DNA of 64,000 nucleotides, taken from a virus. The translations under genes and the position numbers were made by a program. Below are positions 5,172-64,000 of the stretch, one piece after another. The DNA is taken from IMG/VR virus record IMGVR_UViG_3300032069_000001, positions 33,214-97,213 of that record; one strand, 5' to 3'. Under the pieces are notes generated by a model that was not told the origin of the DNA, did no database searches, and was given only the letters and a program-made list of their open reading frames with translations. The first letter of the stretch is position 1; each line of letters opens with the position of its first letter.

Positions 5172-5611
5172 TTAAGCCTTTCGTCAATATGTTTTATATT
5201 TTTTTTAGCCAATTCAATAGTTTTTTCTTTAACGCCTTTCACAGCCAGACATTGTTCTAATAGTTTTTTAGCGTTTTCATAGTCGGCTTTAAACAAGTCT
5301 TTTGCGTCCCACTTATCCAATGCGTGCTTTTTGATTAGCATATAGCCAGCATTGTTAAGTCCCCACGCTTTTAAATCCATTCTGTTCAACTGTTCGCCAA
5401 TACTGGAATATTTCAAATAAAGCTCGGAAGCCTTATCATAATCATAAATCGCACACGCTTGTTCGGCTTCTTTACAGACCTTATTCCAGTCCGCATACAA
5501 TTTTGCTTCGGTCGTGGTCAACTCTTTCGGGGCGACGAGTTTATCCTCCGCAAAACTTATCCCGCAGAACAGAAGAACCAAAATCAAAAACATCTCTACG
5601 CACTTTTTCAT
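5168..5611 (-). CDS. Exported TPR-like helical protein
   Basis: 147 residues with a classic N-terminal signal peptide: a basic start (MKKCVEMF), a hydrophobic core (LILVLLFCGISF), then AED, where signal peptidase I would cut. The mature part is all-helical, with pairs of helices such as ACAIYDYDKASELYLKYSSI and DYENAKKLLEQCLAVKGV, which resemble tetratricopeptide units. An exported protein among packaging genes is unusual. It may act in the host envelope, for example in superinfection exclusion, but nothing in the sequence proves this. It overlaps its neighbours by 4 bases on each side. Confidence 0.75.
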   Translation of the reverse strand: MKKCVEMFLILVLLFCGISFAEDKLVAPKELTTTEAKLYADWNKVCKEAEQACAIYDYDKASELYLKYSSIGEQLNRMDLKAWGLNNAGYMLIKKHALDKWDAKDLFKADYENAKKLLEQCLAVKGVKEKTIELAKKNIKHIDERLK

Positions 5612-5844
5612 TTCTTTACCTCCTTTTTAACTTCTTTTTTGGCGTCAGCTTTCGCATCTGCCTTTACATCTTTCTTCGCTTCAACTGCGACCGAGACGGG
5701 CTGGAGGGTCAGGGATTTCTTGCACGATTTTATTACAATCCCCGCAACCAGACCGACAACAATCACGATGAGAACCCCGATTAACCAGGGCTTCATTATC
5801 TTCTTTGCCACTTTCTTAACTTCTACCTTCGCTTGTGCTACCAT
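5608..5844 (-). CDS. Single-pass membrane protein with Lys/Ala-rich tail
   Basis: 78 residues. One strong transmembrane helix lies at about residues 19-38 (PWLIGVLIVIVVGLVAGIVI). After it comes a low-complexity tail of repeated KADAKADAKKEVKKEVKK type. The basic tail probably lies in the cytoplasm or binds nucleic acid or membrane phosphates. The start has an AAAGGAGGA site. It overlaps the exported protein gene downstream, so the two may work together in the envelope. Confidence 0.75.
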   Translation of the reverse strand: MVAQAKVEVKKVAKKIMKPWLIGVLIVIVVGLVAGIVIKSCKKSLTLQPVSVAVEAKKDVKADAKADAKKEVKKEVKK

Positions 5845-6013
5845 ACTTTAAGTCCTCCTTTAATAGAGGGAGCGGGAACATAGGCTAACGCCCGCCCAGA
5901 CCTCCCTTGAGATTTAATATCGGGAATGGAGCAGGGGTTTTTATCTCTCTTTTGTATAAGTAATTATTTACTTAACTGTTTTGCAAGAAACAACCTTTTC
6001 CTGCTCCATCTCG
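5845..6013 (-). other. Structured intergenic leader
   Basis: A 169-base gap with no convincing gene. On the minus-strand transcript a 10-bp inverted repeat (ATGGAGCAGG at 6009-6000 with CCTGCTCCAT at 5934-5925) encloses a smaller AAGTAA/TTACTT stem. A second GC-rich hairpin (GGGAG and GCGGG pairing with CCCGC and CTCCC) lies just before the ribosome site of the membrane-protein gene. The shape suggests an RNA that controls translation or processing. No known riboswitch class was recognised. Confidence 0.45.
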
Positions 6014-39870: not shown

Positions 39871-40073
39871 TGCGTTACCTCCTTCAAGGTTTCATCAATC
39901 AGTCGTTTTAGGGTCTCCAAGTCCTTAATGCTTCCCAATTTCGCAACCACCTCTTTATCATCAGGAAATATAATAGATAAAGTAAAGGTGCTTAAGGAAA
40001 CTGTGTTATACAAAATCTTAAAAATAGTCCTGACTTTCCTGACGGAAACCTTTGTGAATAGTTTTTCGCTCAT
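39867..40073 (-). CDS. Small protein, 68 aa
   Basis: MSEKLFTKVSVRKVRTIFKI, then a helical end (KDLETLKRLIDETLKEVTQ). 4-base overlaps on both sides. No family is recognised. Confidence 0.58.
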   Translation of the reverse strand: MSEKLFTKVSVRKVRTIFKILYNTVSLSTFTLSIIFPDDKEVVAKLGSIKDLETLKRLIDETLKEVTQ

Positions 40074-40264
40074 TTTGGGGTCTCCTTTTCGCTGTCTAAT
40101 TTACTTTGCCAAACAGCAACTCCATCGTGAACAATTTTTCTATGACAGTTACCATCTGGACAAACAAAGAATTTACCTCTATCCATATAACCATCAGTAA
40201 TGTCCATTTGCACAGCTCCCTTTTTTCCACACACAATACATATATTATCATCTTTTTTGCTCAT
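40070..40264 (-). CDS. Small zinc protein (64 aa)
   Basis: ICIVCGKKGAVQMDITDGYM and FFVCPDGNCHRKI give two cysteine pairs plus a histidine. The pattern resembles small HNH-less zinc fingers of phages. Role unknown. Confidence 0.62.
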   Translation of the reverse strand: MSKKDDNICIVCGKKGAVQMDITDGYMDRGKFFVCPDGNCHRKIVHDGVAVWQSKLDSEKETPK

Positions 40265-43799: not shown

Positions 43800-43828
43800 A
43801 GTATAACATAAGATATGTATTTTGTCAA
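43800..43828 (-). promoter_or_regulatory. Leftward promoter before methyltransferase-fold gene
   Basis: Minus-strand TTGACA (43828-43823), 17-base spacer, TATACT (43805-43800). The transcript would start near 43793, about 30 bases before the gene. Confidence 0.75.
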
Positions 43829-43846: not shown

Positions 43847-43872
43847 GGGGAGCAAGTTTTAGCCTGCTCCCC
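43847..43872 (-). terminator. Strong hairpin after the lysis region
   Basis: GGGGAGCA and TGCTCCCC arms (8 bp, 10-base loop) lie between the last lysis-region stop (43927) and the next promoter. On the minus strand the downstream run is CCTTTCTAAAAA, so the U-tract is poor. It is a likely imperfect terminator or RNA 3' stabiliser. Confidence 0.5.
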
Positions 43873-43926: not shown

Positions 43927-44250
43927 TTAAAATTTTATACTTAAACCAACTGCTGGGTTGAAGACTGGCTTAAAACCAAACAAGTCGTTGTATTTAGTCA
44001 TCATATAAGCCCCAACATCTATCTTTATATTACCTTGTTCCAGAATATTCTTTGCTACTCCAAGACCAATCTTATCGTTTGTAAAACCGCTGTCAAGATA
44101 AAAACCGTTAGTAATATCGGTTATTTTCTTATACACGGCTCCTTGAACTCCGTCCTTATCTACGAGAATTCCTGCTCTTGCGTCGGATAAGGTCTCTACT
44201 ACTGCTTTAACGACGCCTCCTACACTTGTAAAGTCAGGGAGCCCCGTTAT
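43927..44250 (-). CDS. -1-frame extension of the lysis-region protein
   Basis: This frame has no ATG, TTG or GTG before a GTG 38 codons in, yet it is open from the codon after the upstream gene's slippery site. It reads ITGLPDFTSVGGVVKAVVET and ends with alternating strands (NIKIDVGAYMM, FNPAVGLSIKF) like an outer-membrane-type barrel end. A C CCA AAA heptamer at 44256-44250, directly before the TAA of the upstream gene, would shift ribosomes -1 into this frame. Initiation at the ATA is an alternative. Confidence 0.5.
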   Translation of the reverse strand: MTGLPDFTSVGGVVKAVVETLSDARAGILVDKDGVQGAVYKKITDITNGFYLDSGFTNDKIGLGVAKNILEQGNIKIDVGAYMMTKYNDLFGFKPVFNPAVGLSIKF

Positions 44251-44672
44251 TTTGGGTCAGGGTCAGCCTTACCTCCTCCAGTTCCCCCTGCGGGTTCATC
44301 AGCTTTATCTTTCGCAAGTGCCGTAGCCGAACTTATAGCTTCAGAACCCTTTGTATATATGAGGTTTACCGCAGATGCGATATTTTTGGCTTGCGTGACA
44401 TCGTTGTCGGTTACAACCCACCAGCCTGCTCTTTTCATAAACTCACGGAATTTCTGTGCAAACAGATTGATTTTATCATCTGTTTTAACCGTGTTTCCTT
44501 TTTCAGCGTCCACTCTGGCAAACTCCTCAACTGCCCTGAACGCCACTTCTGCCCACTTCTGGACAGCTCTGTTCTTGAGGTATTTCACACCCCCAACCAG
44601 AGAAATGATGAATATAACTATCTTTTGCACAAGTTCGTTGTTCAAAAGATTTACTACGGTATTCATATCCAT
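44247..44672 (-). CDS. Holin-like membrane protein (LL-H type)
   Basis: 141 residues. An N-terminal transmembrane helix (VQKIVIFIISLVGGVKYLKN), then a charged helical domain (WAEVAFRAVEEFARVDAEKG, FAQKFREFMKRAGWWVVTDN) as in the single-span LL-H-like phage holins, and a flexible Gly/Asp/Pro C-terminus. It sits directly downstream of the endolysin. Its last codons form the slippery sequence GAC CCA AAA TAA, which may yield a 248-residue fusion with the next frame. Confidence 0.7.
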   Translation of the reverse strand: MDMNTVVNLLNNELVQKIVIFIISLVGGVKYLKNRAVQKWAEVAFRAVEEFARVDAEKGNTVKTDDKINLFAQKFREFMKRAGWWVVTDNDVTQAKNIASAVNLIYTKGSEAISSATALAKDKADEPAGGTGGGKADPDPK

Positions 44673-44696: not shown

Positions 44697-44715
44697 TGCT
44701 TTGGGCAAATACCCA
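44697..44715. repeat. TTTGGG/CCCAAA inverted repeat
   Basis: CTTTGGG-CAAATA-CCCAAAAG forms a short stem in the gap upstream of the holin-like gene, with a T-run 7 bases farther on the plus side. It may be a weak terminator or leader hairpin. The rest of the gap (44738-44832) is made of TTCCTAAT/TTCTTAAT words. Confidence 0.4.
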
Positions 44716-44737
44716 AAAGCATTGTTTTTTATCGCAA

Positions 44738-44832
44738 TTCCTAATTCTTAATATTCCTAATAGCATTTTCTCAACTCTCCTAATGTTGACCTATTCCTAA
44801 TTTTATTCCTAATTTTCCTAATATTCCTAATA
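44738..44832. repeat. TTCCTAAT-type dispersed word cluster
   Basis: About eight close copies of TTCCTAAT or TTCTTAAT in 95 bases between the endolysin and holin-like genes. The same word occurs singly or in pairs at many gene joins from 8.7 to 54 kb. Confidence 0.6.
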
Positions 44833-45309
44833 TTATTGCAACTTGTAATGCCATAAATCAATCACCCTATTTAACCACCCCAGAAGGTTATCTTCTATTT
44901 TCATAATCGTTGGGTCTTTAGCTCTTGCCTGTCTATTGTTGTTGCATATCTCTGCATATCTTGCCATACGTCTTAACAAAATATCTTTTGCAATAAAATT
45001 TGAACCCAGTTCCGCTAACCACTTTTGAACCTGGGGAACTCCATTATTAACTGCACTATCAAAGATTGCAAGAGCAAGATTGTCTTCGTATTGGTCGCAC
45101 TTCATTGGAACCCAATAATTTTTATAGTAAATATCCTTTGCTACTACCTTTGCATCATCAGCCGACATCTTATCCATTAACGCTACTTCGGTGGGATAAT
45201 AAAGAGAAGCAATGCCCCAGATTGTTAATTTGCCAGGGTCATTTTTGCTGTTGCTTTTATAACCTTCGTGTTCAAAAACAAACGGTAAACATTTATTAAA
45301 CTTCTCCAT
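44833..45309 (-). CDS. GH108-type peptidoglycan lysozyme (endolysin)
   Basis: 158 residues from ATG 45309, which has AAGGAGGGACAAA; a longer frame to 45411 only adds a helix encoded by the dispersed TTAAGAA word. FVFEHEGYKSNSKNDPGKLT with the catalytic Glu, WGIASLYYPTEV, AKDIYYKNYWVPMKCDQYED, LALAIFDSAVNNGVPQVQKW match the GH108 order: glutamate, glycine-rich loop, Y(W) and the N-acetylmuramidase helices. No signal peptide, so release would need a holin, which neighbours provide. Confidence 0.85.
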   Translation of the reverse strand: MEKFNKCLPFVFEHEGYKSNSKNDPGKLTIWGIASLYYPTEVALMDKMSADDAKVVAKDIYYKNYWVPMKCDQYEDNLALAIFDSAVNNGVPQVQKWLAELGSNFIAKDILLRRMARYAEICNNNRQARAKDPTIMKIEDNLLGWLNRVIDLWHYKLQ

Positions 45310-45391
45310 TTTGTCCCTCCTTACTATCAGGTTTTGAACCGCAGTTGGTAAACTTGATTTCTTAATATTATTAAGAAAATTAAGAATTAAC

Positions 45392-45706
45392 TCAAACAGT
45401 TTTTTCAGCATCGTTACTCTCCCCAGAAGATTTCTGTTTGTTCAGCTCTTTCAAATAATCAGCTCCCGTAATAGTAATAATTTTGGTTTCTATTTTCAGA
45501 TTTTCAAAAGTCCTTATTAAGATTAACGAAAGAACGATGATGGTGAAATACAAATCCGAAAATGTTGGTTGAAAATATTTAAGCACTATCATTAGAATAC
45601 AGATGACAAATTTTCCTCCAAGCATCATTTTGGATACCCTGTCTTTGGTGACTTGGCTTAATGTCATTTTATTCATTAGTTGATTAACAAATTTAGGTGC
45701 TTCCAT
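45392..45706 (-). CDS. Holin-like membrane protein (104 aa)
   Basis: MEAPKFVNQLMNKMTLSQVT, then two hydrophobic helices (MMLGGKFVICILMIVLKYF, LYFTIIVLSLILIRTFENL) and a charged C-terminal tail. Size, two spans and position beside the endolysin fit a class II-type holin. AAGGAGGACGAAAA precedes the ATG. Confidence 0.68.
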   Translation of the reverse strand: MEAPKFVNQLMNKMTLSQVTKDRVSKMMLGGKFVICILMIVLKYFQPTFSDLYFTIIVLSLILIRTFENLKIETKIITITGADYLKELNKQKSSGESNDAEKTV

Positions 45707-46039: not shown

Positions 46040-46216
46040 TTAGTTGCTATCCTCCCTGCTCACATCAATTTTATCTTTAATAACTGCAAGCGTTTTGGAT
46101 ATTTCGCCAAGAACGTCTGTCATTTCTTTCATTCGCATTTCGTATCTCCATAACAAATAAATTGCAACGGCTATAGGAAAACCAACCTGTTGAATTATCG
46201 TTACCCACTCATTCAT
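46040..46216 (-). CDS. BhlA/YvrJ-like holin (58 aa)
   Basis: MNEWVTIIQQVGFPIAVAIY, LLWRYEMRMKEM, then a helical tail (VLGEISKTLAVIKDKIDVSR). The layout (short N-terminus, one helix with QxGFPxAVAxYLL, charged helix) is that of small BhlA/UviB/YvrJ holin-type proteins. ATG 46216 with AAAAGGAGAATTT. Third holin-like product in the lysis cassette. Confidence 0.75.
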   Translation of the reverse strand: MNEWVTIIQQVGFPIAVAIYLLWRYEMRMKEMTDVLGEISKTLAVIKDKIDVSREDSN

Positions 46217-49352: not shown

Positions 49353-50816
49353 TTAATTAACTATTATTGTTCCAGCTCTTAAAACTTCATCGGAAGATGT
49401 AATGTAATTTTCCGTCGGAGAATTTATTATTACTTCCCAAATATTTGTATCTAAATTTTCAATATATTGAACCAGTTCTGACAAAATCAAATCTCTATCT
49501 AATGTAAATTCCGTTAGCCAGTCAGATATGCTTTGCTTGACCGTATCTTTAATTACTGTAATATTTGCATCTGGAGCAATAGTTAAAGTTATAGTAATGT
49601 TTAAATTCGTAACAACAGGTGGCTTAACTACAACTTTAATACCGCTTGCTCTGTAATTTTCAATAGCTTGCGTTATTTCGCTAATTAAAGCAGGCGAAGC
49701 TGTCATTGTGCTGTCATAAGCAATAATGTAAATAATCCCCTGGAATGGGGGTAATGTAATCATAAATATTTTTGGAACCTGCGATATTCCTGCCGAAGTC
49801 ACCCGTAACCTTATCCAGAACTTTTTTACTCCGTTAATTATTGTCATCTTCCAGTCAGTTGGCATAGTAAATGATACAATCCCGTCATTTGCAAGAAAGT
49901 TTGTATCATCTGTTGTTGCTAAAGATTGCCAAGCGGAACCATCAAAATACTCCCAAACTAATGCACTACCAACACGCACTACGGACATATCAAATCTTAT
50001 AGCGTCAAAATGACTATCTGCACCGATATACATACTGTCATCAATATTTGCAGGAACAGACAAAGCATAAAACGGAATACCTGTTGGCATATTTGCTTCA
50101 AAACTGTTATCAGTATAAATATCTGTGCTGTCATCATAAGCAAAGCACGAGCAATTCGGAGTTTCAACAGCTATCGCATCAATAACATCTGGGACTGTTT
50201 TTGCTCCATATTCAAGAGCTGGTAGCGTTGCTCTTGAAAGATTGTCAATATAATTCTGAAATCTTGTTTTTCTTGCATCTTCCGTCTCCTCATCTCTACC
50301 AGTAGAAAACTTATTAGAATTAGTTACATTTTCTATTCCAGCGGGAGCTGATGTCATAATTATTATTTTATTTGCTTCAACATTGCCTACTGCTCCTTCT
50401 ACTTCGCATATTACTTCCACATCAACAAAAGTATCTCCAGTCAGTAATGTTGCATCTTCAAGAGTATGGTAGCTAACCGATGATTGTAAATCTGTAGCTT
50501 CTGTTATCACAGTAGTTCCAGCAGGAATTGGATAATCAACGCCAGCAGGAGTTGAACGGGAAAATCTTACTATACCTGTAGCTTGTTTTGCTGGCAACAG
50601 CGGAAAGTTAAAGGAATTAAAAATAGCGTCCTTTATTCCATCATTGATACCTATATAGAGCTGATAATAAACTTGCTCTATTTCTATTGCAACAGCTTCA
50701 AATATCGTTCTTATTTTTGAACCGACATTAAAGTCTGTTACTTTCTGACTAACGCCAGAGAAATAATTTATAATAGATGCGGTAATAGTTTGGAAATGTT
50801 TGACCCCAAAGCTCAT
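49353..50816 (-). CDS. Baseplate J-like protein
   Basis: 487 residues. J-type markers: RFSRSTPAGVDYPIPAGTTV, VEGAVGNVEANKIIIMTSAP, RDEETEDARKTRFQNYIDNL, RASGIKVVVKPPVVTNLNIT, and DWLTEFTLDRDLILSELVQY at the end. It forms the baseplate wedge edge. A domain inserted near 220-350 (YFDGSAWQSLATTDDTNFL) is extra. ATGA overlap with the HNH gene, which carries its ribosome site. Confidence 0.85.
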   Translation of the reverse strand: MSFGVKHFQTITASIINYFSGVSQKVTDFNVGSKIRTIFEAVAIEIEQVYYQLYIGINDGIKDAIFNSFNFPLLPAKQATGIVRFSRSTPAGVDYPIPAGTTVITEATDLQSSVSYHTLEDATLLTGDTFVDVEVICEVEGAVGNVEANKIIIMTSAPAGIENVTNSNKFSTGRDEETEDARKTRFQNYIDNLSRATLPALEYGAKTVPDVIDAIAVETPNCSCFAYDDSTDIYTDNSFEANMPTGIPFYALSVPANIDDSMYIGADSHFDAIRFDMSVVRVGSALVWEYFDGSAWQSLATTDDTNFLANDGIVSFTMPTDWKMTIINGVKKFWIRLRVTSAGISQVPKIFMITLPPFQGIIYIIAYDSTMTASPALISEITQAIENYRASGIKVVVKPPVVTNLNITITLTIAPDANITVIKDTVKQSISDWLTEFTLDRDLILSELVQYIENLDTNIWEVIINSPTENYITSSDEVLRAGTIIVN

Positions 50817-51439
50817 AATGTCCTCCTGTATTTTTTACCATATTTTTTGTGCCACTTGCCGTGACAATCGGAACAATGAGTTATGCCGTTTTTAATATTC
50901 CAAAATGGTTCATAAATCATAGCACCATCATACAGCGACAATAATGGCAGGTTAAATAAAACTTCATCAAGTAATTGAGAAAAAGATTTTTCTGAATGAT
51001 GAGCCGTCAAATATCCTCCTTTTTTACCGCATATTTGACAAGTAAATTCATCTCTTATAAATATTTTTTGTCTCCATTCCGAATACTTCGCAGAACTTCT
51101 TATTCTGTTGGTATCAGGAGTTCTTCCATCTTTCCAGGTTGAAGAACCATTGCCTTTCCGTGCTATACTTTTTTTAATTTTTACTATTACGCTATCCTTT
51201 TTACCCATCTCTTTTTCGCTTATTTTCCTTTTTATATTATCAGACCAATGCTTGCCATAATTCCAATGTTTATTGCCTTTACGTAAATTGCTTAATATCT
51301 TTTTTGTGGTTTCAGACGCACGTTTACCGTAATTATGATTTCTTTTACCCTTTTGACAACAAGATTTACATAAACCAGTTTTACTTCTATCTGGTCTTAT
51401 TATTTTTCGTCCACAGTCTATACAATATTTTTCTTTCAT
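50813..51439 (-). CDS. HNH homing endonuclease with NUMOD3 repeats
   Basis: 208 residues. N-terminal zinc pairs (CIDCGRKIIRPDRSKTGLCK), then three NUMOD3-type units (NHNYGKRASETTKKILSNLR, HWNYGKHWSDNIKRKIS) that read DNA, and an HNH core (FTCQICGKKGGYLTAHHSEK, NGITHCSDCHGKWHKKY). A mobile endonuclease inserted between baseplate genes. A similar gene lies at the right edge. Confidence 0.88.
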   Translation of the reverse strand: MKEKYCIDCGRKIIRPDRSKTGLCKSCCQKGKRNHNYGKRASETTKKILSNLRKGNKHWNYGKHWSDNIKRKISEKEMGKKDSVIVKIKKSIARKGNGSSTWKDGRTPDTNRIRSSAKYSEWRQKIFIRDEFTCQICGKKGGYLTAHHSEKSFSQLLDEVLFNLPLLSLYDGAMIYEPFWNIKNGITHCSDCHGKWHKKYGKKYRRTL

Positions 51440-56129: not shown

Positions 56130-58690
56130 TATACACTTCCTTGTAATCCGTAGAAAGCACCTCTTGCTTGAATAGAGGAACTCATACCGCTTAATTCAAT
56201 GCTCTCTTTGTTTTCTGCTTTTCTTCTTTCTTCTTTCAGTCCGTCTTTAAGCCCTTGTGCTACTGCTTGCCCACCATCATAGCTTGCCTGTGCTCCGTTC
56301 ACATAAACATTTATTGTTCCTATATTTACACCGCCAGCAGAAGCTAAACCCCCATAGCCTTCATCTTCTCCACCTGCAAGCCTTCCAAATCTCTTTCTTT
56401 TTTCCATTGAGGAAAAACCTGCTTCAAGTGTTGATATAGGTTGCTCTCTTAAATATCTTTTAGTAGTTTCACCACCAAATTCTTCTAATGCTTGAGCTGA
56501 CCTGGTAAATGGACTTACACCCCATTCTTCCCCGCCAAAAAACATATTAACAGCTTCCCACCAACCAGGTTCCCGAAGTCCACCAAAAGCCTCGCTTCCC
56601 CACTTCTCTTTTCTGTATTTAGCACCCATTGTCTTTTGGTAATCTACTATTTGTTTTTTATAAGCAACAGTTTCTCCTCTTGCAATTCTGGCTCCTCTAC
56701 TTCTTTCTTCAAATGCAGAACCAATTATACCAACGCCAGTTCCTATAAGACCACCAATAACAGTTCCAATCCCAGGAGCAATCAATGTTCCAATGCCAGC
56801 ACCAACAAGCGGAGCCATTGCAGATAGAGTTGTGGCAGTTCTTTCTCCACCCGTTCTTTCTGGGTCGGTATAAGCTTTAGCTACATCTAAACCACCAGCC
56901 ACAATTTGACCGACTGTGTTATATCTGACAGCTTGTCTAATGCCAACATTAGCACCAGTCCTCATCATAGTTCTCATTAAATTTGCTCCAACAGCCATTC
57001 TGCCAGTTATGCCAACTTTCATACCTATTTGTCCAGCACCAAACATACCTTGAGCAAGACCCATTCCAGTCCCCATTGCCATTGCTTGAGTTCTTGTTTC
57101 GCTTAATGAGTTGACACCCCAAAGACCAGCACCCAAAATTTTTGCACCAAGCCCAACAAGGGGATAAAGCTTATTTGTCATTCCGCTTAATTGCTGTTGT
57201 AAAAATGTTATATCTTGTGTCATTCCATATCGCTGTCTTGTCATTCCTGCAACACCACCCATTTGTTGCATTTGTCGTATTGCTTCTTTATCGCTTACAT
57301 CGCCAGCAAGTAATCGTTTCATTAAGCCTGTATCATACATTCTTTCTATCATAGGTTGGGGCATACCCAAAATAGATGAAGCCATTACACGTGCTATTTC
57401 TTCTCCCTGATTTTCTGTTATAAACTTAAGAGTTTCTTTTGCTAACCTAAAACCATCATTAGTTGCCAATCCTTCTGATTTTAATATTTGAGCTAATCTG
57501 TATCGTCCAACACCAGTTTCTATATCAATCCCACGTCTTTTTGCAACATCTCCAAAACCCCTTCCAACTATTTCTGTCTGAATAGCAACCATTGCTTCAC
57601 TTTGGTCGCCCATCATCTTTTCAAATCCCTGGACTACTTGTGTTGCTCCAAGCCCTCTTAAAGCGGGTATTCCAGCTCTGTTTACTTCAGCCAGAATAGC
57701 AGTTATTGTATCTGGTTTTACTTCTGGTATTTTTGTGAAATAACTTTGCATTAACGTAGTAACGGATTGCATAAATTCATCTGAACGGCGGGTCATTCCG
57801 CCTTTTTCCATAGCACCAGCAAAAAGATTTGCCATTTCTTGTTGTGTTGCTCTGTCAAATTTTGTTCCACCCATACGAGCCATCATAGCAAATTGCTGTC
57901 CCATACGTTCAACAGGAATACCATATCCCCTGGCAAGACCCATTATTGCTCGTTCATTGGGTAACACATCAGATAATCTTGAAAACGCATCAACCAGTTG
58001 TAATCCTTGTTTACCCGTATAACCAAATTGAGCAGAAACATCAACAGTATGCCTTCTTAATGCCTCTATTCTTTCGCCCATTATTTCAAAAGATACGTTC
58101 GTATCTTCCAGTCTTGGTGCTAAACTTTGCAATATTTTCTGTTGTGCTGTCCATTCTCCAATGGTTCTGCGAGCCATATAATACATTGCTGGAATAGCAA
58201 CAGTCATACCCAATCTTCCAGCAGTATCAAATACCGCCTGTCTTTGTGCTCTTTTTTCTTCTATTTCCTGTTGAACTTTCTCTGGATAGGTTCTTGCACG
58301 GGAAATCTTTTCTTCTAATTGCGTTTTTCTCTTGAGAAAACCTTCATACTTTCTTAACAAATCCAAATCTACAGCTCGTTCAAGAATTTGTTGTTTTTGT
58401 TTTGGAGCTACTCCTTCCAATTCTTTATTCAGTTGCCTTAAAAGTTTTGTCTGTTCTTTATATTTTTCATTATTCTTTTTAAGAAAGCCGTCTATAGCAC
58501 CAAGCTTAATACCGAGGTCTTTTTGTGTCCTTACATAATTCTCATACACTCTCGGTTCGCCAAAAAACTTTTGCCTTACTTGTTGGGAGATTTTATCAAT
58601 CTGCCCACGCATACGGTCAAAAACATTTCCCAGTTCTTTAACCTGTTGTTGACCCCTGACATAAGCCTGTATTTCTATTCTTGTCGCCAT
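56129..58690 (-). CDS. Tape measure protein
   Basis: 853 residues. A long helical N-terminus (YVRGQQQVKELGNVFDRMRG), then a TMP-like core (YTGKQGLQLVDAFSRLSDVL, MGLARGYGIPVERMGQQFAM), and hydrophobic Gly/Ala segments (VGAGIGTLIAPGIGTVIGGL, IGTGVGIIGSAFEE) able to cross a membrane. It sets tail length and is ejected first. Its place after the chaperone is standard. Overlaps the chaperone's second frame by 16 bases. Confidence 0.85.
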   Translation of the reverse strand: MATRIEIQAYVRGQQQVKELGNVFDRMRGQIDKISQQVRQKFFGEPRVYENYVRTQKDLGIKLGAIDGFLKKNNEKYKEQTKLLRQLNKELEGVAPKQKQQILERAVDLDLLRKYEGFLKRKTQLEEKISRARTYPEKVQQEIEEKRAQRQAVFDTAGRLGMTVAIPAMYYMARRTIGEWTAQQKILQSLAPRLEDTNVSFEIMGERIEALRRHTVDVSAQFGYTGKQGLQLVDAFSRLSDVLPNERAIMGLARGYGIPVERMGQQFAMMARMGGTKFDRATQQEMANLFAGAMEKGGMTRRSDEFMQSVTTLMQSYFTKIPEVKPDTITAILAEVNRAGIPALRGLGATQVVQGFEKMMGDQSEAMVAIQTEIVGRGFGDVAKRRGIDIETGVGRYRLAQILKSEGLATNDGFRLAKETLKFITENQGEEIARVMASSILGMPQPMIERMYDTGLMKRLLAGDVSDKEAIRQMQQMGGVAGMTRQRYGMTQDITFLQQQLSGMTNKLYPLVGLGAKILGAGLWGVNSLSETRTQAMAMGTGMGLAQGMFGAGQIGMKVGITGRMAVGANLMRTMMRTGANVGIRQAVRYNTVGQIVAGGLDVAKAYTDPERTGGERTATTLSAMAPLVGAGIGTLIAPGIGTVIGGLIGTGVGIIGSAFEERSRGARIARGETVAYKKQIVDYQKTMGAKYRKEKWGSEAFGGLREPGWWEAVNMFFGGEEWGVSPFTRSAQALEEFGGETTKRYLREQPISTLEAGFSSMEKRKRFGRLAGGEDEGYGGLASAGGVNIGTINVYVNGAQASYDGGQAVAQGLKDGLKEERRKAENKESIELSGMSSSIQARGAFYGLQGSV

Positions 58691-58923
58691 TTTACCTCTT
58701 TGTTTTCACTAATATCCCTAATATTGACTTGCTTAATTTCAAGGTCTATCTTTTTATCCAGGTAGTAATCCTTGCCCTTTATTACCTTACTTATATCAAT
58801 CTCAAGGTTCTTTTCCATCAAGTCATAAGACGTTGTTTCAAAATGCTCTTTTGAAGCCAAGTCAATCGCAGGATTATCAATTAACCAATGCTCATAAAGC
58901 AAATCAACCTGTTCTTCCGTCAA
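58675..58923 (-). CDS. Tail assembly chaperone, second (shifted) frame
   Basis: The annotated start would be a TTG, but the same frame is open upstream to a TAG near 59083 and there reads AKLPKQRKLWWIQREFKVLP, then TSKDYLNLTEEQVDLLYEHW, which looks like the start of the T-part of phage tail chaperones. No ATG or GTG is present, so it should be made by a +1 (or -2) frameshift from the first frame. A candidate slip site is GAG AAA GCT at 58987-58979. Confidence 0.6.
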   Translation of the reverse strand: MTEEQVDLLYEHWLIDNPAIDLASKEHFETTSYDLMEKNLEIDISKVIKGKDYYLDKKIDLEIKQVNIRDISENKEVKWRQE

Positions 58924-58936
58924 GTTTAAGTAATCT

Positions 58937-59449
58937 TTACTTGTTGGCAGAACTTTGAACTCTCTCTGTATCCACCAGAGCTTTCTCTGCTTCGGCAGTT
59001 TTGCTATCGTCCTTATGTCTTGGATTACGGAACCTACGAAAGGAGTTACGCCACTCGGCGTATTCCTCCCATACGAACTCTATGAGTTCGTAATCATAAA
59101 GTTCGTGCGGTTTCCACCAGTCAGGAGATACATCTATCACGACATCAAAGGTAGCCAAAAATAAACACACGTTGTCTGTGACAATATCAACCATTGTTTC
59201 CTGTTTGTATCTGTTATATCTAATGCCGATTTCCCGTTCCTCGCCAATAGTTGGACGATGAAACGTTATGTCTCCTTTAAAGTCCTCAAACTCCAGATGA
59301 ATGGTTTTTGTAAACCTTCCACCTTTGTTGACGTTATCGCCAACAGTTTTAAGAACTTTTTGCTTCTCTGCTTCTTTTTCTTCCTCTGTCATTTCTGACA
59401 CAGGTTTTTTCACTTCCTTTATGTTCTTCACTTCGTTTATTCCACCCAT
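58937..59449 (-). CDS. Tail assembly chaperone, first frame
   Basis: 170 residues. MGGINEVKNIKEVKKPVSEM, an acidic helix, then KTIHLEFEDFKGDITFHRPT, IGEEREIGIRYNRYKQETMV, WWKPHELYDYELIEFVWEEY: the G-type part of the chaperone between tube and tape measure genes. The leader is GGAGGCGTAGAT. The fused product with the next frame would wrap the tape measure protein. Confidence 0.75.
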   Translation of the reverse strand: MGGINEVKNIKEVKKPVSEMTEEEKEAEKQKVLKTVGDNVNKGGRFTKTIHLEFEDFKGDITFHRPTIGEEREIGIRYNRYKQETMVDIVTDNVCLFLATFDVVIDVSPDWWKPHELYDYELIEFVWEEYAEWRNSFRRFRNPRHKDDSKTAEAEKALVDTERVQSSANK

Positions 59450-62710: not shown

Positions 62711-63462
62711 ATTGACATATCCTTCTCATAACCAGCAACTATCATACCTTTTATCGTCGGTTCAAGATTTTCTTTTAATGCTTTTGATACAGGTTTTGCT
62801 GTAACGCCTGGGTGCACCCACGCATTATCGGGTGTCTTACTGCTTATTCTTCTGAACTTTATAACCCCGCCTCCGCCTCCTGCTTCCTGTGTTAATCCTG
62901 CATACTGTCCCGATTTCCAAGTATAAGCTGGCATACCAAATTCTTTCGGCAAAAGCTGGCTTCTCTTTCCTATATCATAGGTCTTAAGAGCTCCCTCCAC
63001 CCTTACATTTGCCAATCTTCCAGCAGTTATATTTGTTTTAACAACTGTTGGCATATCCGTTAATTTTTCATCATCAAAAGGAACATCAACATATCCTTTT
63101 GCCATAGCTACTTTTCCTGCAAGCATTTTATCTTTAAGTTCAAATGCCGAAAAACCACGCTCAAGTATATCAACATAATCAAGGTTTACCTCTACAGCTC
63201 CCTGAAGTTTATCGCTATGATATGGGTATTGTAAACCATTCGCAACTGCTTGAGCATACATACCCGAGCCTCTGTTTATCCTAAATTTCCCGCCAGAATA
63301 AACTACATCAACACCCGAAATATATTCAAGCCATTTCGCCTGAACAAGTTGTGTAGCTGACTTAACAGCCGAAGCGGTGTTTGTCAGGTCTTTCAAGTCT
63401 TTCTTTAAGACCTTCGTCACCTTCGCTAACGCTTCCACGTCAACTTTAATTGTTACTTCCAT
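62707..63462 (-). CDS. HK97 gp10-like neck protein
   Basis: 251 residues. MEVTIKVDVEALAKVTKVLK, TQLVQAKWLEYISGVDVVY, then KTPDNAWVHPGVTAKPVSKA and LEPTIKGMIVAGYEKDM: helix-rich ends with a central beta part, as in gp10-type head-tail connectors that are larger than the usual 100-150 residues. The HNH frame overlaps its start. Confidence 0.65.
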   Translation of the reverse strand: MEVTIKVDVEALAKVTKVLKKDLKDLTNTASAVKSATQLVQAKWLEYISGVDVVYSGGKFRINRGSGMYAQAVANGLQYPYHSDKLQGAVEVNLDYVDILERGFSAFELKDKMLAGKVAMAKGYVDVPFDDEKLTDMPTVVKTNITAGRLANVRVEGALKTYDIGKRSQLLPKEFGMPAYTWKSGQYAGLTQEAGGGGGVIKFRRISSKTPDNAWVHPGVTAKPVSKALKENLEPTIKGMIVAGYEKDMSI

Positions 63463-64000
63463 AATTCCACCTTATTTGATTTTTCTATTATTTTAAGTTG
63501 TTTATGATATTCGTCGTGACAATCCTTGCAATAAGTTATGCCATTATTGGTATCCCAAAGCGGAGCATACAACATACAGGCATCATATAGGGATAAAAAA
63601 GAAAACATTTGTTGTGCCTCCTGTAATAATTTGCAAAATAATTTAATATGGTGTGCACGCAAAATCCCGCCTCTTTTACCACAATCCATACAAGTAAAAT
63701 TGTCTCGTTTAAATATTTCATCACGCCATTGCTTATATTCAAAGCTTTGTCTTATTTTTTTCTCTACGGGGGTTATTCCACCTTTCCAAGTATAGCTTTT
63801 CTCCCCTTTCAATGATAAGCTTATGTTTTTTCTTTGCTCAATGGTTCTTTTTGACCCAGTATTATATTTATTTTTCTGCATCAACTCACTAATTTTTTTT
63901 CTTGTTTCTGGAGAATTTATATAGCCCAACTGTATCTTTTTATTTATCCTTGCTATTCCTATTTTTTTCTTATGTTCTTCTTTTTGTGGGTGCTTACTGC
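63453..64000 (-). CDS. HNH homing endonuclease, 5' end beyond right edge
   Basis: The frame continues to the right edge without a start: SKHPQKEEHKKKIGIARINK, then NUMOD3-type units (NSPETRKKISELMQKNKYNT, SKRTIEQRKNISLSLKGEKS) and the HNH core (FTCMDCGKRGGILRAHHIKL, NGITYCKDCHDEYHKQL). A TTG at 63929 is a false internal start. A paralogue of the gene at 50813. It interrupts the neck gene cluster. Confidence 0.88.
   Translation of the reverse strand, partial: SKHPQKEEHKKKIGIARINKKIQLGYINSPETRKKISELMQKNKYNTGSKRTIEQRKNISLSLKGEKSYTWKGGITPVEKKIRQSFEYKQWRDEIFKRDNFTCMDCGKRGGILRAHHIKLFCKLLQEAQQMFSFLSLYDACMLYAPLWDTNNGITYCKDCHDEYHKQLKIIEKSNKVELWK

What the first reader, a model, noticed from the sequence alone, without database searches (positions are those of the whole stretch)
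43927..44672. Slippery C CCA AAA directly before the stop of a holin-like gene, with a -1 frame open beyond
The 0-frame ends GAC CCA AAA TAA, an in-register X XXY YYZ heptamer. Shifting -1 gives CCC AAA ATA and continues for 107 residues in a frame lacking its own normal start for 38 codons. The fusion (248 residues) would join a membrane helix to a domain ending in outer-membrane-like strands, which would suit an envelope-spanning lysis factor.
Basis: partly seen in the sequence, partly recalled or inferred. Interest (0 to 1): 0.65.

Follow-up and report, generated by a model that had tools for sequence, protein, structure and literature searches.

The report
Ribosomal frameshift in phage holin-like gene
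A phage's holin-like lysis gene appears to make a second, longer protein by having some ribosomes slip back one base just before its stop codon; a much-diverged relative keeps the same slip site and the same hidden second half, so this is very unlikely to be chance or a sequencing error.

Summary
A 141-aa holin-like ORF (44672..44247) ends GAC CCA AAA TAA. The heptamer CCCAAAA is in register, and the -1 frame runs on for 107 codons. The -1 frame has a TGA directly 5' of the heptamer, so the only place to cross is inside CCCAAA.

The decisive evidence is a relative, G020 (an IMG/VR contig). Its LLH-like protein is 49% identical and its -1 domain 31%. Its C-terminal tail is unrelated and 21 codons shorter, yet it keeps CCCAAAATAAC at the junction and the -1 frame open into the homologous domain (shuffle z = 12). 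An RNA hairpin follows in both (about -17.5 kcal/mol; z -2.2 and -5). In both, the -1 ORF is followed by a strong hairpin and then a consensus promoter, so it is the end of the lysis operon. Own-start alternatives look poor.

Best reading: programmed -1 frameshifting makes a long isoform of a holin-like membrane protein. The envelope-spanning idea is only weakly supported: the OMP-like C-terminus is conserved, but the positive-inside rule puts that domain in the cytoplasm. Lysis-gene frameshifting of this kind was not found in the literature searched. Only two genomes carry it; nothing is shown experimentally.

The parts
44247..44672 (-). 0-frame ORF: 141-aa LLH-like, holin-like protein (one N-terminal TM at residues ~14-32, helical charged middle, G/A/P-rich variable tail, ends ..PDPK*)
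   Evidence: 49% identical homolog in G020 (L190:5574-5933)
44250..44256 (-). slippery heptamer C CCA AAA, in register
   Evidence: identical in G020 at L190:5924-5930; C_CC.A_AA.A is a shift-prone E. coli motif (PMC4066793)
44247..44249 (-). 0-frame stop TAA directly 3' of the heptamer
44257..44259 (-). -1 frame stop TGA directly 5' of the heptamer: frame crossing is possible only inside the heptamer
44271..44279 (-). internal Shine-Dalgarno-like GGAGGAGGT, 14 nt upstream of the heptamer (possible stimulator; not conserved in G020)
   Evidence: SD window of 6-17 nt from PMC4066793
44208..44249 (-). RNA hairpin from the stop codon onward, about -17 kcal/mol, z about -2.2
   Evidence: a hairpin with z about -5 lies at the same place in G020
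43927..44256 (-). -1 frame ORF (109 codons + stop): conserved domain with predicted N-terminal helices and about 4 C-terminal beta strands, ending AVGLSIKF (P0001)
44134..44136 (-). first possible start codon (GTG) in the -1 frame; SD-like AAGGAG only 2 nt away
43847..43872 (-). strong stem-loop (10 bp) downstream of the -1 ORF: likely end of the lysis transcript; a counterpart exists in G020
43800..43828 (-). sigma-70-type promoter TTGACA-17-TATACT (11/12) of the next unit, directly after the -1 ORF
   Evidence: 12/12 promoter at the same place in G020
44833..45411 (-). GH108 endolysin (neighbouring lysis gene)
46040..46216 (-). YvrJ/holin-family small membrane protein (neighbouring lysis gene)
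45392..45706 (-). small membrane protein between the holin and the endolysin; similar protein at the same place in G020

Best explanation
The last gene of the phage's lysis operon is decoded in two ways. Most ribosomes stop at TAA and make a 141-aa LLH-like, holin-like membrane protein. A minority slip -1 on C CCA AAA (Pro-Lys tRNAs re-pairing to CCC AAA), helped by the adjacent stop codon, a 3' RNA hairpin and, in this phage, an upstream SD-like GGAGGAGGT. They then add a 107-aa domain that ends in about four predicted beta strands. The result would be two co-produced isoforms in a ratio set by frameshift efficiency. Shown by sequence: the signal, its conservation, and homology of the hidden domain. 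Inferred: that slippage occurs, its efficiency, and that the long isoform is a partner or regulator of the short one in lysis. An envelope-bridging role for the long form is possible but less likely.
For: Same heptamer, stop and following base (CCCAAAATAAC) in G020, although the LLH tail before it is unalignable and 21 codons shorter. The -1 frame in G020 encodes a homologous domain (31% identity; shuffle z = 12, 0/1000; tblastn E 9.7e-5). 15 of the 29 identical residues use different codons, the same share as in the LLH part. The residues just after the site (PKIT, then D-F-S) are conserved ahead of any start codon (z 2.5-3). A hairpin follows in both. C_CC.A_AA.A is shift-prone in E. coli without stimulators, and V_VV.A_AA.R is in the most efficient class (PMC4066793). 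Terminator-like hairpins and consensus promoters follow the -1 ORF in both. G020 has a different endolysin (Amidase_2 instead of GH108) but the same arrangement here.
Against: Only two genomes carry it; none of 48 other related viral contigs searched has a homolog of either half (many are fragments). The hairpin in this window is modest, and its significance is lost once the first 6 nt are covered by the ribosome (z 0.1). The SD-like stimulator is not conserved. No expression data exist. Which isoform does what is unknown.
Confidence: 0.82

Rival explanations
1. The -1 ORF is a separate gene with its own internal start (GTG 44136, 69 aa, here; ATG at codon 34 in G020), and the heptamer is incidental.
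For: The two starts lie within a few codons of each other in the alignment, and each has a weak SD-like sequence. The C-terminal part alone is the best conserved (z = 10).
Against: SD energies (-6.1 with 2-nt spacing; -4.2) are poorer than most genes of this phage (typically -8 to -13). The 38 codons before the GTG are open and conserved in residue identity with G020 (z 2.5-3). It does not explain the conserved CCCAAAATAAC (base rate of any such heptamer at ORF ends about 1-2%).
Confidence: 0.09
2. Termination-reinitiation at AUA in the ATAA overlap (analogous to ATGA coupling), giving a separate 107-aa protein.
For: ATAA is conserved in both genomes. This phage uses ATGA overlaps elsewhere, one of them behind CCCAAAATGA at contig 73292.
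Against: AUA is a very poor start. There is no SD at usable spacing in either genome (-3.1, -3.3 kcal/mol). It leaves the conserved CCC and the 3' hairpin unexplained.
Confidence: 0.05
3. Sequencing or assembly error, or a recent frameshift mutation, in what is really one continuous ORF (one base missing from CCCAAAA).
For: One extra A or C would fuse the frames in register. The site is a pair of homopolymer runs.
Against: The same site and frame relation occur in a separately assembled relative that is 49%/31% identical in protein. A shared error at the same base is implausible, and a shared old mutation would not keep the -1 frame open.
Confidence: 0.02
4. The frameshift is real and the long isoform is an envelope-spanning (unimolecular-spanin-like) lysis factor: N-terminal inner-membrane helix, C-terminal beta domain in the outer membrane. 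(A sub-case of the best explanation, not an alternative to the frameshift.)
For: The C-terminus fits the OMP end pattern (F at -1, hydrophobic at -3, -5, -7) in both genomes, against 1 of 139 other ORFs. Four C-terminal strands are predicted (low confidence). No other spanin candidate was noticed in the cassette. The endolysins show no wall-binding domain, as is usual for phages of Gram-negative hosts (own knowledge).
Against: Charges flanking the TM predict N-out/C-in in all three LLH-like proteins, which leaves the domain cytoplasmic. There is no lipobox. The host is unknown. The structure is unresolved (pLDDT 39).
Confidence: 0.2

Closest known systems
Programmed -1 frameshift of tail assembly chaperone genes (lambda G/GT; Xu, Hendrix and Duda 2004, cited in PMC3483164), including KL1 GGGAAAC directly before a TGA stop
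   Same: X XXY YYZ heptamer at or near the end of an upstream ORF; a minor C-terminally extended isoform; heptamer directly before the stop in KL1
   Different: The gene here is in the lysis cassette, not before the tape measure. This phage has its separate tail-chaperone frameshift, in the other direction (+1/-2)
IS3/IS1-family and dnaX -1 frameshift signals of bacteria
   Same: A-rich shift codons, 3' structure and optional upstream SD at 6-17 nt (PMC4066793)
   Different: CCCAAAA heptamer with the 0-frame stop immediately adjacent; phage lysis gene
Lambda S105/S107 holin-antiholin pair (dual start; own knowledge)
   Same: One holin gene, two isoforms in a fixed ratio
   Different: There the isoforms differ at the N-terminus through two starts; here they would differ at the C-terminus through frameshifting
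MS2 lysis gene (translation coupled to termination of the coat gene; cited in PMC5009743)
   Same: A phage lysis function made to depend on an unusual decoding event in an upstream gene
   Different: MS2 L is a separate product made by reinitiation, not a -1 fusion
LLH holins (Pfam PF09682 Phage_holin_6_1; PHROG 608)
   Same: Position after the endolysin, one N-terminal TM, charged helical middle, variable tail
   Different: No significant profile match for this protein; no member with a -1 extension found in the searches made
Unimolecular spanins (T1 gp11; PMC6139136)
   Same: A single protein that could touch both membranes; beta-rich part
   Different: u-spanins have an N-terminal lipobox and a C-terminal TM; here the order is reversed, with no lipobox and the opposite predicted orientation

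Membership tests
Programmed -1 ribosomal frameshift signal | In-register X XXY YYZ heptamer where the 0-frame ORF ends and a -1 ORF is open | tested here: met
Programmed -1 ribosomal frameshift signal | Heptamer of a kind that slips in bacteria | tested here: met
   C_CC.A_AA.A is in the >0.10% unstimulated set and the V_VV.A_AA.R efficient class in E. coli (PMC4066793); the real host is unknown
Programmed -1 ribosomal frameshift signal | Conserved heptamer and -1 ORF in a diverged relative | tested here: met
   G020:
Programmed -1 ribosomal frameshift signal | 3' RNA structure at suitable spacing | tested here: met
   G020: hairpin 7 nt after the heptamer, z about -5; window: hairpin from the stop, z about -2.2, not significant if the first nucleotides are excluded
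Programmed -1 ribosomal frameshift signal | Upstream SD-like stimulator 6-17 nt away (optional) | tested here: inconclusive
   GGAGGAGGT ends 14 nt upstream in the window; none in G020
Programmed -1 ribosomal frameshift signal | Fusion product made in cells | not testable with these tools
   needs a reporter assay or mass spectrometry
LLH holin family (PF09682 / PHROG holins) | Significant profile match | tested here: not met
   none for this protein or the G020 protein; only the positional counterpart in G004 is near (PHROG 608 E 0.0022, PF09682 E 0.05)
LLH holin family (PF09682 / PHROG holins) | Short protein with one N-terminal TM, in the lysis cassette | tested here: met
Unimolecular spanin | N-terminal lipobox and C-terminal TM | tested here: not met
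   N-terminal TM without lipobox, no C-terminal TM
Tail assembly chaperone frameshift | Located just upstream of the tape-measure gene | tested here: not met
   Locus is downstream of the endolysin; the chaperone pair is at 59449..58675
Outer-membrane beta protein (C-terminal signature) | C-terminal aromatic with alternating hydrophobics | tested here: met
   SIKF / TARF ends; background 1 of 139 ORFs; the barrel fold itself is not shown

The most novel reading that the evidence does not exclude
A phage lysis protein is made as two C-terminal isoforms by programmed -1 frameshifting, and the minor long isoform is an envelope-bridging factor of a new layout (inner-membrane helix plus outer-membrane-like beta end). 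Frameshift efficiency would then set the ratio of holin-like protein to outer-membrane disruptor.
Probability: 0.17. Interest if true: 0.85.

Novelty: new variant of a known kind. Interest (0 to 1): 0.62.

Why it matters
Programmed frameshifting in tailed phages is known mainly from tail chaperones. A conserved case inside a lysis gene would show recoding used to set isoform ratios in host lysis, a role so far known from dual starts. It also exposes a protein family (the -1 domain) that ordinary gene callers miss because it has no start codon, and it gives a simple reporter-testable cassette.

Tried and rejected
P0001 and the LLH protein gave no hit in 50,697 phage records or in single-protein viral scans. 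Portal and single-protein TerL scans gave only distant or no relatives. Relatives were reached through TerL and tail-tube alignments.

Two genome-contig scans found no host-linked relative. Structure prediction gave pLDDT 39 with one or two sequences, so no fold search was run. PDB sequence searches were empty or insignificant.

Two weak phage hits were rejected: the Flavobacterium phage hit lies on the strand opposite to the annotated genes, and the faecal-phage hit (MT836435) falls in an unrelated larger ORF. Homology of the G020 secreted protein to the -1 domain was tested and not supported (hhalign probability 0.1%). Readthrough of TAA was rejected (0 frame closes within 9 codons). Transcriptional slippage was judged unlikely because the run is only 4 A.

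Full report
WHAT IS THERE. The window is positions 33214-97213 of a 97,213-base viral record, a contractile-tailed phage whose terminase is 36-37% identical to SPO1-like phages. The finding lies on the minus strand. A 141-aa ORF (44672..44247) ends GAC CCA AAA TAA. The heptamer CCCAAAA (44256..44250) is in register. In the -1 frame a TGA abuts it on the 5' side and the frame then stays open for 109 codons to 43927. The frames can therefore be crossed only within the six bases CCCAAA. The first possible start in the -1 frame is a GTG at codon 41.

NEIGHBOURHOOD. Going with transcription: DUF4815-like tail protein, YvrJ/holin-family protein, a small membrane protein, GH108 endolysin (44833-45411), then this gene. 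It is the last gene of the lysis operon. Directly after the -1 ORF come a strong stem-loop (43872..43847) and a near-consensus promoter (43828..43800) for the next unit.

RELATIVES. Direct searches found nothing. A tail-tube alignment led to IMGVR_UViG_3300037225_000234 (G020, tube 83% identical), and P0001 matched there. In G020 (L190) an LLH-like ORF (5574-5933) ends AGC CCA AAA TAA. CCC AAA ATA ACA... opens a -1 frame to 6211 that encodes the homologous domain. The LLH parts are 49% identical and the -1 domains 31% (local-alignment shuffle z = 12, none of 1000 shuffles as good). The LLH tails just before the junction are unalignable and differ by about 21 codons, but 11 bases at the junction, CCCAAAATAAC, are identical. 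Half of the identical residues of the -1 domain use different codons, as in the LLH part, so the protein is what is conserved.

CHANCE. An in-register heptamer of the A/T type before a stop occurs at 6 of 282 ORF ends of the two genomes, these two included. One of them alone would be unremarkable. Recurrence of the same heptamer at the same gene end together with a homologous -1 ORF is not.

STIMULATORS. G020 has a hairpin starting 7 nt after the heptamer (-17.7 kcal/mol, z about -5). The window has one starting at the stop codon (-17.5 kcal/mol, z about -2.2, lowest 2-3% of gene ends), weaker if the bases covered by the ribosome are excluded. The window also has GGAGGAGGT ending 14 nt upstream, within the 6-17 nt range used for stimulatory SDs (PMC4066793); G020 lacks it. 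C_CC.A_AA.A slips in E. coli even without stimulators (PMC4066793).

ALTERNATIVES. Own start: the GTG (SD -6.1, spacing 2) and the G020 ATG at codon 34 (SD -4.2) are poor next to most genes of this phage, and residues ahead of them are conserved (z 2.5-3). Some additional internal initiation cannot be excluded. AUA initiation: no SD in either genome. Sequencing error: excluded in practice by the second genome. Readthrough: the 0 frame closes within nine codons.

FUNCTION. The 0-frame protein has one N-terminal TM, a helical charged middle and a variable tail, in a holin-like position. No family model reaches significance for it. The positional counterpart in a more distant phage (G004) matches LLH-type holin profiles weakly (PHROG 608 E 0.0022; PF09682 E 0.05) and lacks the -1 domain. 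The -1 domain has predicted helices then about four strands, at low confidence, and ends like an outer-membrane protein in both genomes. Charges around the TM predict the C-terminus inside the cell, which argues against the envelope-spanning idea. I commit to a minor, C-terminally extended isoform that partners or regulates the short one during lysis (inferred), with envelope bridging as a less likely reading.

WHAT IS KNOWN. Tail-chaperone frameshifts are standard in tailed phages, including a heptamer directly before the stop (PMC3483164). The large recoding review, as far as its text is held here, does not mention holins, and literature searches for frameshifting in holin genes turned up none in the titles, abstracts and passages read, within an open-access library only. 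I therefore call it a new variant of a known kind.

Noticed in passing
window 58675-59449 (minus): The tail-assembly chaperone gene has an extension in the +1/-2 frame (..RKLWWIQREFKVLPTSKDYL..), conserved in G020: the canonical pre-tape-measure frameshift, in the other direction from the lysis one.
   Followed up: partly
window 44700-44830: Several ATTAGGAATA-type repeats in the non-coding gap between the GH108 endolysin and the holin-like gene; an ATTAGGAAT also precedes the G020 homolog.
   Followed up: no
L190:5074-5535 (G020): A 153-aa protein with a signal peptide sits between the amidase endolysin and the holin-like gene in G020; no homolog found and not shown to be related to the -1 domain.
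   Followed up: partly
window ~40070-40079 (minus): CCCAAAATGA: the same heptamer directly before an ATGA stop-start overlap; the next gene has its own ATG, so this one is probably incidental.
   Followed up: partly
window 50813-51439 and 63453-63929 (minus): HNH-endonuclease-like ORFs inserted among tail genes, similar to each other and to copies in contig G001.
   Followed up: no
window 44833-45411 versus L190:4176-4907: The endolysin differs in type between the two phages (GH108 versus Amidase_2) while the frameshifted gene next to it is kept.
   Followed up: yes
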